Part shown: one piece after another, positions 3,882 to 62,207 of the stretch
Layout: every line of letters starts with the position of its first letter
Numbering within the stretch: the stretch's first letter is position 1
Assembly: GCA_913056235.1 (NCBI GenBank)
Contig: CAJXMW010000001.1
Location: 62,001-126,000 of the forward strand
DNA from: an uncultured Fodinibius sp.
GTDB taxonomy: Bacteria; Bacteroidota; Rhodothermia; Balneolales; Balneolaceae
DNA: 64,000 nt
Reading direction: 5' to 3'
The notes under the pieces: generated by a model
The model's input: the letters and a program-made list of their open reading frames with translations, nothing else
What the model was told of the DNA's origin: nothing
Databases searched by the model: none
Position numbers and translations under genes: made by a program

Positions 3882-4676
3882 ATGTCATTTAATAATAAAG
3901 TCGTTTGGATCACCGGCGCATCCTCGGGCATCGGTGAGGCGCTCACTTACCAACTACACCAACGAGGTGCCAAGCTTATTTTGTCATCGCGCCGAAAAGA
4001 AGTGCTCGAAAAGGTAAAAAGTAACTGCAGCGGCGATACCTCAGACATCCACATTCTGCCACTGGACCTTGCTGAAACGGACGTACTGAATCAAAAAGCA
4101 GAACAGGCACTGGACCTGTATGGCCACATTGACTACCTATTTAATAATGGCGGCATTAGTCAGCGCTCTGAGGTCATCGACACAAATTTGGAGGTCGTCC
4201 GCAAGGTGATGGAGATCAACTTTTTTGGATCGGTAGCCCTGACCAAGGCTGTGCTTCCCTCGATGATTGAGCGGCAAGCGGGACACATCGTGGTAACCAG
4301 CAGCGTGATGGGTAAATTTGGTACGCGGCTCCGTTCAAGCTATGCTGCATCCAAACATGCCCTTCACGGCTATTTCGACTGCCTGCGCCAGGAAGTTTAC
4401 GACGATAATATCCACGTATCGCTGGTGTGCCCGGGTTATATTAAGACCGATGTTACCCAAAATGCCCTGGAAGGCGACGGCAGCAAACACAATAAAATGG
4501 GTAAAGGGCAGCAACAAGGCATGGCACCGTCAAGATTTGCAGAAAAATTACTCCCGAAAATCGCCAACCGAAAAGAAGAAATTTACATTGGGGGAGTTGA
4601 AACCTGGGCTGTTTACCTTAAGCGATTTGTCCCAAAGCTTTTTAATAAAGTTCTACGAAGGTCAGAAGTCACTTAG
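3882..4676 (+). CDS. SDR-family oxidoreductase
   Basis: Classical short-chain dehydrogenase/reductase of 264 residues. It has the NAD(P)-binding TGASSGIG motif (11-18), NNGG (88-91) and the catalytic Ser-Tyr154-x3-Lys158 (YAASK). An Arg at the end of beta-2 (SSRR) favours NADPH. The overall pattern is like the DHRS7/short-chain family acting on lipids or steroids, but the substrate cannot be told. The last bases nearly meet the convergent lipoprotein gene that ends at 4685. Confidence 0.9.
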   Translation: MSFNNKVVWITGASSGIGEALTYQLHQRGAKLILSSRRKEVLEKVKSNCSGDTSDIHILPLDLAETDVLNQKAEQALDLYGHIDYLFNNGGISQRSEVIDTNLEVVRKVMEINFFGSVALTKAVLPSMIERQAGHIVVTSSVMGKFGTRLRSSYAASKHALHGYFDCLRQEVYDDNIHVSLVCPGYIKTDVTQNALEGDGSKHNKMGKGQQQGMAPSRFAEKLLPKIANRKEEIYIGGVETWAVYLKRFVPKLFNKVLRRSEVT

Positions 4677-23779: not shown

Positions 23780-23847
23780 CAGTTGTCAGTTGTCAGTTGT
23801 CAGTTGTCAGTTGTCAGTTGTCAGTTGTCAGTTGTCAGTTGTCAGTT
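23780..23847. repeat. Tandem heptamer repeat (CAGTTGT)x9
   Basis: Nine exact head-to-tail copies of CAGTTGT (starts at 23780, 23787, 23794 ... 23836) plus a partial tenth (CAGTTA). It starts 3 bases upstream of the HIT start codon, in what should be its 5' leader. Copies are identical, as expected for a slippage-prone array. Confidence 0.95.
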
Positions 23848-23936
23848 ACAAGCTGGAGGTCAAGACTCGCATTGTCAAACCAAGTTTGTAATTTTTTATT
23901 TTTAATTCCTAAATCATAATTAGCCATATTCCAAGA

Positions 23937-51645: not shown

Positions 51646-51815
51646 AAACCCTCACGCCAAGATATTCTCCTTGCCCGAATCGGCCACAAACACGCAGGCC
51701 GACTGGGTGCGGTCGACGAAAGAGCGCAGGTCGTCCACGTCGGGCTCTTCGGGTAGTCCCAGCAGGTCGAGGTCAGCCTGGGGAGCGTTCCATCCCCTCC
51801 CGGAACTCCCGCCTC
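51646..51815 (-). pseudogene. C-terminal remnant of a second APC-type permease
   Basis: The minus strand encodes NAPQADLDLLGLPEEPDVDD and onward to ...VADSGKENILA-stop, matching the last 45 codons of the intact permease at 52715. The first 69 bases (51646-51714) are identical to 52709-52777; the next 77 are about 79% identical with conservative replacements (Asp to Glu, Leu to Val, Thr to Ser), so it was once a functional paralogue. Further upstream the frame is lost by small deletions and similarity ends near 51815. Confidence 0.8.
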
Positions 51816-52431: not shown

Positions 52432-52569
52432 CCTTATAAGGCCGGTGACATTCTCATTATAAGGGGAATGATATTATCATAGTAAGGAGAGTAATACTGC
52501 CATACTAAGGAGAGACATATTGTCCTTACTATGAGACTCTGATTCCCATAGTAAGGGGAAGCAAAAAGC
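52432..52569. repeat. 23-bp degenerate tandem repeat, six units
   Basis: Units start at 52432, 52455, 52478, 52501, 52524 and 52547, exactly 23 bp apart. Four units share CATA(G/C)TAAGG(A/G)GA or CATTATAAGGGGA; the first (CCTTATAAGGCCG) and fifth (CCTTACTATGAGA) are more diverged. There is no open reading frame across it. The rest of the 312-base gap (to 52714) shows nothing else. Confidence 0.8.
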
Positions 52570-52714
52570 ACACTACAACTTGTTTTCTATTACCGGAATA
52601 TGGAACTGGAGCAGATTCTGACGTTTTGAGGTCCAACCGGAATGTTAGCACCAAGATTGAGGTCAAATCAGATATGATACCTTAATTTTACTACTTTTTA
52701 AGGTCTAGAAACCC

Positions 52715-54940
52715 TCACGCCAAGATATTCTCCTTGCCCGAATCGGCCACAAACACGCAGGCCGACTGGGTGCGGTCCACGAATGTGCGTAGCTCATCCA
52801 AGTCAGGATCTTCAGGTAAGCCCAGCAGATCGAGGTCGGCCTGGGGCGCATTTTCCATCGCCTCTCGAAACGTCCCGATTTCAACGTGGGCGATGGCATC
52901 CGGCAGGCGGGCCAGGTCCAGTAAATTTTCTAAATAACGGTACGCCTCTTCAACTTGTGATTCTTCCACCACGGTGATAACGCGCATTTGGGCATCCCAG
53001 TTTACCTTTAGCTTGTAGGCCGTCAGCAGCGCCAAATCCATATTGCCGAGCTCCATACTCAAATCCCAGTCGGGACTCTGCTCGTGAATCCACACGTTGA
53101 CTGATGAGCTGCGTCCCAGCTGCGCGACGGCATCCTCTGCATATAGCTGAACACCCATGTCGTGCACCCGAGCCTGCCTGATGATTGATTGTATTTCCTC
53201 GTCATAACTTTTGTGATACGGCAGCCGCAGAAACAAAATATTGGGTCGAAAGAAAGTGCCCTGCAGGGTCTGCAGCGAGTTCACAATCGCCTCCTCAAAA
53301 TTATCAGAATCAATCACGCTCCATCGGGTATAGACGTTCTCGTGTCCAAATGAAAAGGCAAAGTCCATCAGCGAATCATTGAGCTGGCTCTTTCTCTGCT
53401 GGCCGGGTACACCTACAAGCTTCACCGACCCCTTGGGATAGACGAGATTGCGTATCAGGCTGAAACTACCTCGCAGCTCCCGGGCGCTACGGACCGGCAC
53501 CAACAGGTTGGCCTTCCAGGCACGCTCGTTGTGTTCCGGTAGTGAGGAGACCCGCTTGGCTGCCCACTCCGCCAACGATACAAACAGGCCGCTGCGCATA
53601 TCTCCATAGGGAACGTTTAGCTTTCTGTTGGAAAGATACAGGTAAGTGATCACCACAAAACCCAGGGCAATAAGCCCAAAGGTGGAGTTGATAATAAACA
53701 TGGTAAACAGGCAGCCCACCGTACCAAGCAGCGGCACGAATTTGGGAATTCGGAAGGTTGGGCGGAAACTGATCATATCCATCCGCTGCTCGATAAACAC
53801 CACCAGATTGATCATCATGTAGGTGATTAGGAAAAACATGGTGATGAGCGGGGCAATAGTATTAAGATCCCTGACCAACAAGGTCGCCAGTACGAGTCCG
53901 CCGGTGAGCATGATCGCATTGCGCGGTTCCCCATTGTCGGCCAGCTTCGAAAACATATCGCCTCCCGGGAAAATCTTATGTTCGCCCAAAGCCTGCAGGA
54001 TTCGGGGCGCACCTACAATCGAGGCCAGTGCCGATGAAAAAGTCGCCCCCAGCAGGCCGCCCAGCACCGCCGGCGCCCAGAGGGCGTAGTCGATCATCAC
54101 ATTGTAGTTGCTCACCAGCTCGTCCACCGGGGCCACGCGGGCCATCCAGTATCCACTAGCCATGTAAATCACATAGCTGATAGCAATGGCCGATAGCGTG
54201 CCCAACGGGATACTCTTCTTGGGATTTTTAAGCTCTCCAGACATGTTCGCGCCGGCCATAATACCGGTAGCCGCCGGAAAGAGCACGGCGAAGACCACCC
54301 AAAAACTGACGCCCTGGAAATCGTTCTCGGAGGCGCCTGGAAAGGTACCCCACCACTGAATGCTGTGCTCCATCGCTCCAGTGAAGACGGTGGCCCCTAC
54401 TGAAATGAGCGCTCCAATGATCACCGCGAGGATGATATACTGGATGCGGAACGCCAGCTTGGCGCTCATGTAGGCCACAATAAAAAGGACGGCGAAAACT
54501 ACGATATCCACCACAATGGCATAGTGATCGGGAAAGATGTAGAGCCAGCCTTCCCTGAAACCAAAGATATACATGGTAATAGCGAAGGTCTGCGCCAAGT
54601 AGAGCGGTACGCCCACGCTGCCGCCCACTTCGAGCCCCAACGACTGGGAGATAATAGAATAGGCACCCCCGGCCTTGATGCGGATATTGGTGGTAATGCA
54701 CGACATGGAGAGAGCGGTAAAGGTGACAATCACAAAAGCCAGCGTGATGATCATCCACCCACCGAGTAGCCCAGCGTTACCGATCACCCAGCCCTGTCGA
54801 AGAAACAGGATCACGCCCAGAATAGTGAGCAGGGTAGGCACAAAGACACCGCCAAACGTGCCATACTTCTGTTGTACTGTGGATTCGTGCTCCTCGACCT
54901 GTTCTTGCAGTGTCGTTTCTTCTGGTTGTTGATCAGTCAT
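52715..54940 (-). CDS. APC/cation-chloride-cotransporter-like permease
   Basis: 741 residues from ATG 54940 (the preceding in-frame TTG is less likely). Twelve membrane helices span about 30-480: the start GTFGGVFVPTLLTILGVILFLRQGWVIGNAGL is typical of the SLC12-like branch of the APC superfamily, as is GGAYSIISQSLGLEVGGSVG. A soluble C-terminal domain of about 260 residues follows. It likely imports or exports ions with amino acids or chloride. Its last 50 codons recur as a decayed copy 1063 bp away. Confidence 0.85.
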   Translation of the reverse strand: MTDQQPEETTLQEQVEEHESTVQQKYGTFGGVFVPTLLTILGVILFLRQGWVIGNAGLLGGWMIITLAFVIVTFTALSMSCITTNIRIKAGGAYSIISQSLGLEVGGSVGVPLYLAQTFAITMYIFGFREGWLYIFPDHYAIVVDIVVFAVLFIVAYMSAKLAFRIQYIILAVIIGALISVGATVFTGAMEHSIQWWGTFPGASENDFQGVSFWVVFAVLFPAATGIMAGANMSGELKNPKKSIPLGTLSAIAISYVIYMASGYWMARVAPVDELVSNYNVMIDYALWAPAVLGGLLGATFSSALASIVGAPRILQALGEHKIFPGGDMFSKLADNGEPRNAIMLTGGLVLATLLVRDLNTIAPLITMFFLITYMMINLVVFIEQRMDMISFRPTFRIPKFVPLLGTVGCLFTMFIINSTFGLIALGFVVITYLYLSNRKLNVPYGDMRSGLFVSLAEWAAKRVSSLPEHNERAWKANLLVPVRSARELRGSFSLIRNLVYPKGSVKLVGVPGQQRKSQLNDSLMDFAFSFGHENVYTRWSVIDSDNFEEAIVNSLQTLQGTFFRPNILFLRLPYHKSYDEEIQSIIRQARVHDMGVQLYAEDAVAQLGRSSSVNVWIHEQSPDWDLSMELGNMDLALLTAYKLKVNWDAQMRVITVVEESQVEEAYRYLENLLDLARLPDAIAHVEIGTFREAMENAPQADLDLLGLPEDPDLDELRTFVDRTQSACVFVADSGKENILA

Positions 54941-55035
54941 AAGCAAAGGGACTGCTTTTAATAGACAATCACAGTTATCATCTCAATTAGGATAACTGTT
55001 ATTTTAGAATAATATGATGACGTAATGATCGTATT

Positions 55036-55378: not shown

Positions 55379-55841
55379 GCCTTTTGTCTTTATACAAAAG
55401 GCTCATAAAAAATCAAGGCTGAGAATTCAGAATACACTCCGAACATCCGGCTGGAGTATTTCGATGGTCCTTGAACTCTTACAATAATTCCCAAACTCAT
55501 CACCGGTGCGAAATACTCCTTTTCGCCAACCGTTCTCCGTTCAGAATTCTTATGCCCCCACAAAATCCCGTTTGACCAATACTTCTGAACCATTCTTTCT
55601 TTCCATAAAACAGCAAGTAATGCAAATTATGACTTGCCGCTAACTTCACGGTCTTCAAAAGCCTGAGAATTCTGTGGTGGAGGCCTGCAAGATGAGGAAG
55701 AGCATTTCATACCGGTTCAAACCAGAAACATGGCACGACAGCTAAAGGACCATTGAAATGCTCTCATCCAAAGGCCGACACCGTATACAGAATTCTAAGC
55801 GCTTGATCTTTTGGTTCATTTTGGATCAAGCCAAAATGAAC
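55379..55841. repeat. Paired inverted palindromic element, locus 1 (units A and B)
   Basis: Two half-units point away from each other. Each has two GAATTC sites 121-123 bp apart, an inner stem at +30/+86 and an outer 8-11-bp hairpin. Unit A (minus orientation, 55379-55549): hairpin GCCTTTTGT/ACAAAAGGC, GAATTC at 55423 and 55544, inner stem GGAGTATTTCG (55453-55463) with CGAAATACTCC (55509-55519). Unit B (55667-55841): GAATTC at 55667 and 55790, inner stem GAGCATTTCA (55700) with TGAAATGCTC (55754), hairpin GTTCATTTTGG-ATCAAG-CCAAAATGAAC (55814-55841). ACCGGT follows or precedes the inner stem in both. No protein is encoded in the 55240-55891 gap. Confidence 0.82.
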
Positions 55842-61738: not shown

Positions 61739-61832
61739 TACTTCTCAATTTAGGGATGCAACGCAGAGCATTGCATCCAGATTAAACTAAAAACTTCTTT
61801 TCCGCCTTTTAGCTTGATACAAACTTCTTCAT

Positions 61833-62207
61833 GTTCATTTTTCAGTGAGGAAAAAATGAACCAAAAAACTCACCACCTGAGAATTCTTCGCCTGAGCGGT
61901 GCTCACCAGAACCTGCAAAAGCGCAAACTCATTCGCTATGCTCATTCAGATCCCGAAGGTTCGGGACCAACGGTTCTGCTTCACTTGTACCGAGACAACT
62001 CACAATTCATATGGTGGTTTTTTAGAGGGCCTAGAATTCTGAGCGGAGAACGGTAGGCGAAACAGCGTATTTCGTACCGGTACATCTCGCAGAAACAACT
62101 ACAAAAGACAAAGGACCATCGAAATACGCTAGCCGGACGATCAGAGTCGCATTCAGAATTCTCAGCCTTGATTTTTTAGTACCTTTTGGATCAAGCCAAA
62201 AGGTGCT
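61833..62207. repeat. Paired inverted palindromic element, locus 2 (units D and C)
   Basis: Same layout as at 55.4-55.8 kb. Unit D (minus orientation): hairpin GTTCATTTTT...AAAAAATGAAC (61833-61861), GAATTC at 61881 and CAATTC at 62004 (123 bp apart), a 7-bp inner stem CAGAACC/GGTTCTG (61907, 61972). Unit C: GAATTC at 62034 and 62156, inner stem AGCGTATTTCG (62064) with CGAAATACGCT (62120), ACCGGT at 62076, hairpin ACCTTTTGG-ATCAAG-CCAAAAGGT. Bases 62156-62177 of C are the exact complement of 55407-55428 in unit A. No protein is encoded between 61739 and 62266. Confidence 0.8.

What the first reader, a model, noticed from the sequence alone, without database searches (positions are those of the whole stretch)
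55379..55841. Paired palindromic element with covarying stems (locus 1)
Two diverging half-units share spacing of GAATTC sites (121 and 123 bp), an inner stem at the same offsets and an outer hairpin with loop ATCAAG/ATAAAG. Stem sequences differ between copies but complementarity is kept (GGAGTATTTCG/CGAAATACTCC versus GAGCATTTCA/TGAAATGCTC). Compensatory change points to selection for structure in RNA or single-stranded DNA, as in REP/MITE-like elements or an unknown structured RNA.
Basis: seen in the sequence. Interest (0 to 1): 0.78.

Follow-up and report, generated by a model that had tools for sequence, protein, structure and literature searches.

The report
Folding mobile DNA repeat, mover unknown
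The marked stretch holds two mirror-image copies of a roughly 190-letter mobile DNA repeat that keeps its fold while its letters change; relatives are scattered through many bacteria and the enzyme that moves it has not been found.

Summary
In detail: GAATTC spacings of 121 and 123 bp and both stems are exact. Each half is one copy of a dispersed unit of about 180-200 bp: a hairpin whose loop is complementary to a tract just downstream (pseudoknot-like), then a long rod with a conserved asymmetric internal loop (ATGGTCC/ACCGGTR). The window genome has 12 copies; 18 of 58 genomes searched, own included, have some. Covariation is strong: 157 double-changed cells against 50 in shuffles, 173 of 180 stem pairs in a structure-blind set; the loop-tract pairing covaries too. 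Hairpin plus tract occur across Bacteroidota and in the fusobacterium Ilyobacter.

Copies are mostly intergenic, without strand preference; about half of the within-genome pairs share the same sharp ends (37 of 78), and one genome shows a lineage-specific insertion. This fits a non-autonomous, structure-recognised mobile repeat, REP/REPIN-like. RNA gains no support: G.U is no commoner than A.C. The suspected Y1 transposase is probably not the partner, though unit numbers and Y1 relatives go together within the genus. The mobiliser is unknown. Rfam and the paper searches made gave no description.

The parts
55379..55402 (+). unit 1, outer hairpin (GCCTTTTGT / loop CTTTAT / ACAAAAGGC)
   Evidence: sequence; family hairpin
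55412..55417 (+). unit 1, tract ATCAAG that pairs with the hairpin loop in most relatives (one mismatch here)
55418..55556 (+). unit 1, rod: GGCTGAGAATTC ... CAGAATTCTTATGCC
   Evidence: alignment A1 and consensus structure
55453..55519 (+). unit 1, inner stem GGAGTATTTCG/CGAAATACTCC with ATGGTCC (55464-55470) and ACCGGTG (55502-55508)
55659..55797 (-). unit 2, rod, opposite orientation
55700..55763 (-). unit 2, inner stem GAGCATTTCA/TGAAATGCTC with ATGGTCC and ACCGGTA on the - strand
55802..55807 (-). unit 2, tract (ATCAAG on -) complementary to the hairpin loop
55814..55841 (-). unit 2, outer hairpin (GTTCATTTTGG / CTTGAT / CCAAAATGAAC on -)
62027..62204 (-). third unit in the window (hairpin, tract, rod)
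61830..61890 (+). remnant of an inverted fourth unit: hairpin with loop GTGAG, tract CTCAC, GAATTC
   Evidence: read from the sequence; not a model hit

Best explanation
A non-autonomous mobile DNA repeat recognised by the shape of its folded single strand. One unit is about 180-200 bp: a hairpin whose loop can pair with a short tract a few bases downstream, then a long imperfect palindrome with a fixed asymmetric internal loop near its tip. Units stand singly or as inverted pairs. Shown: dispersed copies with recurring ends, mostly intergenic sites, no strand preference, compensatory change in the rod and in the loop-tract pairing, one lineage-specific insertion. Inferred: that an enzyme supplied in trans acts on the folded DNA strand (for instance while exposed at the replication fork) and that the loop-tract pairing marks the end to be cut or joined. 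Copies that lose the fold stop spreading, which keeps the pairing while sequences drift into subfamilies. The enzyme was not found.
For: Covariation: 22 of 30 pairs, 157 double-changed cells against a shuffled mean of 49.7, 0 of 500 shuffles, lost when partners are slid; 173 of 180 pairs in 18 units chosen without regard to structure, at most 140 with swapped arms; loop-tract complementarity 5.67 nt in 66 units against at most 4.71 in 1000 shuffles. DNA rather than RNA: 11 G.T and 19 A.C in 990 pairs. No direction relative to genes: 39 with, 35 against (97 units) and 13 with, 17 against (64); convergent gaps preferred over divergent ones, 17 to 6 and 25 to 9. Recurring ends in 37 of 78 in-register within-genome pairs. 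Insertion beside recA in G380, absent in six relatives whose alignments reach the junction. Copies 92-98% identical at scattered places of one Ilyobacter replicon.
Against: No mobilising enzyme, no exact target site and no consistent target duplication. 23 of the 78 within-genome pairs extend past the unit and 16 upstream of it, so ends are not uniform. Half 1 itself folds poorly. Units also persist at orthologous places between species, so some copies are old and could have another role. Single-strandedness is not shown. Mechanical ORFs overlap 8 of 100 and 10 of 86 units.
Confidence: 0.58

Rival explanations
1. A structured RNA (trans-acting or retro-mobilised): the unit is transcribed and selection acts on the folded RNA.
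For: The hairpin, 5-11 nt A-rich spacer and tract look like a compact H-type pseudoknot of RNA (geometry recalled); strong covariation. Reverse transcriptase genes occur in 10 of 14 genomes with units or hairpins.
Against: G.U no commoner than A.C; no direction relative to genes; no Rfam match; 4 of 14 such genomes have no reverse transcriptase match.
Confidence: 0.14
2. A MITE of an ordinary DDE transposon acting on double-stranded terminal inverted repeats; matching arms are kept or regenerated by template switching during replication rather than by selection on a fold.
For: The rod ends are inverted repeats; template switching would give double changes without G.U intermediates (mechanism recalled).
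Against: The non-complementary internal loop persists: ATGGTCC in 71 and ACCGGTA/G in 67 of 96 units, where correction should remove it. Loop-tract pairing crosses the hairpin stem and is no simple palindrome. No consistent target duplication. No transposase among the 25 families shown (of 141 found) for 111 neighbouring ORFs.
Confidence: 0.15
3. A true REP element of a Y1 transposase (RAYT, subclass 2.6 of Bacteroidetes), the unit being its atypical structure.
For: A Y1 gene has a unit close by in G000 and in G003; within the genus, genomes with close Y1 relatives have more units; a paper reports atypical structures beside subclass 2.6 genes in Bacteroidetes (PMC6006769).
Against: 25 of 33 Y1 loci have another, simple hairpin within 500 bp, including the G000 gene with the neighbouring unit; 0 Y1 ORFs in 80 loci around the hairpin; nine of 26 unit- or hairpin-bearing genomes without a Y1 match in the searches made (G005, G007, G009, G011, G092, G424, G429, G433, G434; G092 and the last four were not).
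Confidence: 0.13

Closest known systems
REP / REPIN / BIME elements with RAYT (TnpA-REP)
   Same: dispersed, mostly intergenic palindromic units, singly and as inverted pairs, with conserved fold
   Different: about 190 bp instead of 20-40 bp; loop pairs with a downstream tract; no GT[AG]G foot seen; RAYT partner not found
'Atypical secondary structures' beside TnpA-Y1 subclass 2.6 genes of Bacteroidetes (PMC6006769; abstract, sections 12, 25, part of 15, and passages seen)
   Same: Bacteroidetes, copies elsewhere in the genome, no GT[AG]G foot
   Different: paper ties them to Y1 genes; here the link failed most tests. Its Table S1 could not be read, so identity is not excluded
MITEs of Porphyromonas such as BrickBuilt (PMC4596501, passages seen)
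   Same: small non-coding mobile repeats of Bacteroidetes with inverted ends
   Different: BrickBuilt has 12-bp ends like IS5-family elements and 23-nt tandem repeats; here hairpin, tract and rod
IS200/IS605 ends
   Same: folded single strand recognised by shape (recalled analogy)
   Different: no transposase gene in or beside the unit; guide-like pairing lies between hairpin loop and downstream tract

Membership tests
REP/REPIN (RAYT-associated) | dispersed intergenic palindromes, also in inverted pairs | tested here: met
   among 13 neighbouring unit pairs within 700 bp 7 are +-, 3 -+, 2 --, 1 ++
REP/REPIN (RAYT-associated) | 5' GT[AG]G foot at the hairpin | tested here: not met
   no conserved foot in the flank consensus of 78 units or in the hairpins listed
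REP/REPIN (RAYT-associated) | RAYT gene flanked by the same element | tested here: not met
   two distinct genes in 34 partly overlapping Y1 loci; 25 of 33 loci have other hairpins; 0 in 80 loci
MITE | inverted terminal repeats | tested here: met
   rod ends and inverted hairpins
MITE | target-site duplication | tested here: inconclusive
   five full Ilyobacter elements, no consistent repeat, AT-rich flanks
MITE | autonomous relative with the same ends | tested here: inconclusive
   none seen in the loci fetched; no genome-wide search possible
structured non-coding RNA | member of a known RNA family | tested here: not met
structured non-coding RNA | tolerance of G.U over A.C pairs | tested here: not met
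   11 against 19 of 990
structured non-coding RNA | transcription of the unit | not testable with these tools
   no expression data
integron attC site | integron integrase and gene cassettes | not tested
   considered from anatomy only

The most novel reading that the evidence does not exclude
An undescribed, cross-phylum class of selfish structured DNA that carries its own intramolecular guide (hairpin loop paired with a downstream tract, often different variants at the two ends) and is moved by an enzyme family not yet known to act on such folds.
Probability: 0.35. Interest if true: 0.82.

Novelty: new variant of a known kind. Interest (0 to 1): 0.6.

Why it matters
Repeats of this kind occur from Fodinibius relatives to Parabacteroides, Pedobacter, Mucilaginibacter and the fusobacterium Ilyobacter, yet no Rfam family and none of the papers returned by the searches made was seen to describe them. 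A structure backed by covariation in many subfamilies makes the moving enzyme searchable by binding assays, and makes the role of a guide-like loop in DNA mobility testable.

Tried and rejected
Y1 transposase as partner: adjacency, family searches, flanking hairpins; unlikely as far as tested, with the within-genus correlation against this conclusion. PF01797 scores divergent Y1 proteins weakly (the G000 gene beside a unit only 22 bits), so 'no match' is not proof of absence.

Y2 (IS91) family: no match in 14 genomes, but the control rang nowhere, so uninformative. Reverse transcriptase: no match in 4 of 14 genomes. Enriched neighbour gene: 138 ORFs collected, 114 of at most 520 aa printed, 111 of these given to the scan; 25 of 141 families shown, the commonest in 4 members.

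G.U against A.C on the outer hairpin: raw counts 19 against 54 were largely an artefact of stems extended past the hairpin foot and are not used. A gene framed by inverted units in L266 is not a transposase by its look. Target duplications: none consistent. Phage records: no match. Paper searches by sequence string and by topic: no description seen.

Full report
Observation. The four GAATTC sites, their spacings and both stems are as described. Half 2 is half 1 inverted. A perfect 11-bp long-range stem in each half was not reached in 600 dinucleotide shuffles. As single-stranded DNA half 2 folds with z -6.8, half 1 only with z -1.6.

Family. A search of the window's own genome found further copies, one of them in the window at 62.0-62.2 kb. 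A scan of fetched loci for the core gave 30 distinct units, aligned as A1. They share a hairpin, a rod that usually begins near GGCTKAGAATTC and ends near GAATTCTTAGGCC, a freely varying 10-11 bp stem, the motifs ATGGTCC and ACCGGTR, and an apical loop of 29-32 nt in 89 of 96 units. A covariance model found 12 copies in the window genome and copies in 18 of 58 genomes, the own genome included; a DNA query found matches in 20 of 58. Contigs of genome G004 have the same lengths (59,676 and 72,207 bases) as two Fodinibius halophilus records (contig lengths of C19 and C17), so the window most likely comes from a Fodinibius-like member of Balneolaceae (inference).

Covariation. On A1, 22 of 30 pairs have double changes, with 157 double-changed cells against a shuffled mean of 49.7 (0 of 500 shuffles); sliding the partners destroys it. 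A1 was gathered with a stem requirement, so the test was repeated on units brought in by sequence similarity alone and anchored on the motifs: 18 units, 173 of 180 pairs Watson-Crick, at most 140 with swapped arms in 1000 trials. Inside the conserved motif one pair is G-C in 80, A-T in 6, but A.C in 6, G.T in 3 and C.C in 1 of 96 units, so compensation there is weak. The outer hairpin loop is complementary to a downstream tract: of 100 units 66 could be tested (15 lacked the anchor, 19 a hairpin of 8 net pairs); mean 5.67 nt against at most 4.71 in 1000 shuffles, and for the 31 units without TTGAT in the loop 4.90 against at most 3.97. In Parabacteroides-like genomes the variants CTTGAT/ATCAAG, CTTGAC/GTCAAG and CTTGAA/TTCAAG coexist, and several full elements carry different variants at their two ends.

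DNA or RNA. In the inner stem of 99 units of 100, 990 pairs, G.T number 11, A.C 19, other mismatches 32. Selection on RNA should favour G.U. Relative to neighbouring genes 39 units run with and 35 against in 97 units of Fodinibius relatives, 13 and 17 in 64 pan-phylum units; convergent gaps outnumber divergent ones 17 to 6 and 25 to 9 (ORFs were called mechanically, and 8 of 100 and 10 of 86 units overlap such an ORF). No Rfam family matches.

Mobility. Of 78 in-register within-genome pairs of at least 150 bp, 37 have both ends at the hairpin start and at 180-210 bp, 23 extend past 210 bp and 16 upstream. In G380 an element with inverted hairpins at both ends lies beside a conserved gene that I read as recA; in six relatives whose alignments reach the junction (G423, G424, G426, G429, G433, G434) the gap is 23-267 bp with no such hairpin, 23 bp in G434; in six more relatives the left alignment stops 39-310 bases short. 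Exact ends and target could not be fixed. At two sets of orthologous places the unit lies in opposite orientation relative to its flanks (L142 against L088; L200 against L174 and L091), as expected if different members of an inverted pair survived. In Ilyobacter polytropus several long copies are 92-98% identical, so movement was probably recent.

Distribution. Of 394 genomes of the phylum 12 had this exact variant, the reversed control none. Plasmid records add Parabacteroides distasonis, Aureibacter and the fusobacterium Ilyobacter, the last with 39 matches in one replicon. The three share the apex AACTCGC...CTCARACAG, found in strict form in 18 of 76 pan-phylum rods. In Ilyobacter, Mucilaginibacter and Pedobacter some 25-35 nt outside the hairpin look conserved too, differently in each; in 68 Parabacteroides flanks they do not.

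Who moves it. A Y1 gene lies near a unit in two places. Within the genus the four genomes with close Y1 relatives have 12, 23, 18 and 23 units, the other eight 0, 8, 3, 3, 2, 6, 15 and 0, which speaks for a link. Against it: 25 of 33 Y1 loci carry another simple hairpin within 500 bp, among them the G000 gene with the neighbouring unit; no Y1 ORF occurs in 80 pan-phylum loci; 10 of 26 genomes with units or hairpins have no PF01797 match, of which G002 has a partial match by another search. Of 111 neighbouring ORFs no transposase family is among the 25 shown of 141. Two stretches of the Ilyobacter record show mainly metabolic genes; an IS3 transposase lies in each stretch, about 95 bp from a hairpin remnant at 244,981 in one. 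The mobilising enzyme stays unknown.

What is known. Nearest are RAYT-linked REPs and the 'atypical secondary structures' of subclass 2.6 in Bacteroidetes (PMC6006769: abstract, sections 12 and 25, part 1 of section 15, and passages; its supplementary table was not read). PMC3733652 was seen as the start of its abstract and one passage, PMC4596501 as passages, PMC5771137 in a listing only. Eight paper searches, one by sequence strings, returned nothing that I saw to describe the unit; the library holds openly licensed papers only, and most returned papers were seen only as listings.

Verdict. A real, covariation-supported family of small non-autonomous repeats found in two phyla, working like REP/REPIN elements but failing two of their defining tests (foot, partner gene). 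The single-stranded DNA mechanism and the enzyme acting in trans are inferred.

Noticed in passing
window 51646-51789 and 52709-52852: A 144-nt direct repeat, 89% identical; the second copy lies at the 3' end of the 743-aa transporter-like ORF 52715-54946, so the first looks like a duplicated gene end.
   Followed up: no
L030-L033, L111-L140: 25 of 33 Y1-transposase loci carry a simple hairpin within 500 bp, often with a 3-nt loop, such as AGACCTGACAGGTTT-TCA-AAACCTGTCAGGTCT: probable cognate REPs, distinct from the unit.
   Followed up: partly
L147, L154, L158-L160, L196-L199: Units in Fodinibius relatives often lie in clusters of sugar-nucleotide and polysaccharide genes (ORF clusters, judged by eye, no database).
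   Followed up: no
L266 3164-5369: A single 551-aa ORF framed by two inverted units (241 bp, 90% identical) in a Bacteroidales bin, like a composite element.
   Followed up: partly
L387-L396 and other Ilyobacter loci: Outside the hairpin a box near AAATTAYTGAATTTATC is shared by most of 23 flanks, itself nearly palindromic.
   Followed up: partly
L206 3428-3515: A Flavo-1 RNA match (RF01705) lies about 650 bp from the Pedobacter hairpin at 4166-4200; relation unknown.
   Followed up: no
window 23780-23854: Tandem CAGTTGT repeat.
   Followed up: no
window 52451-52560: Inverted repeat with 43-nt arms, 74% complementary, next to the transporter-like ORF.
   Followed up: no
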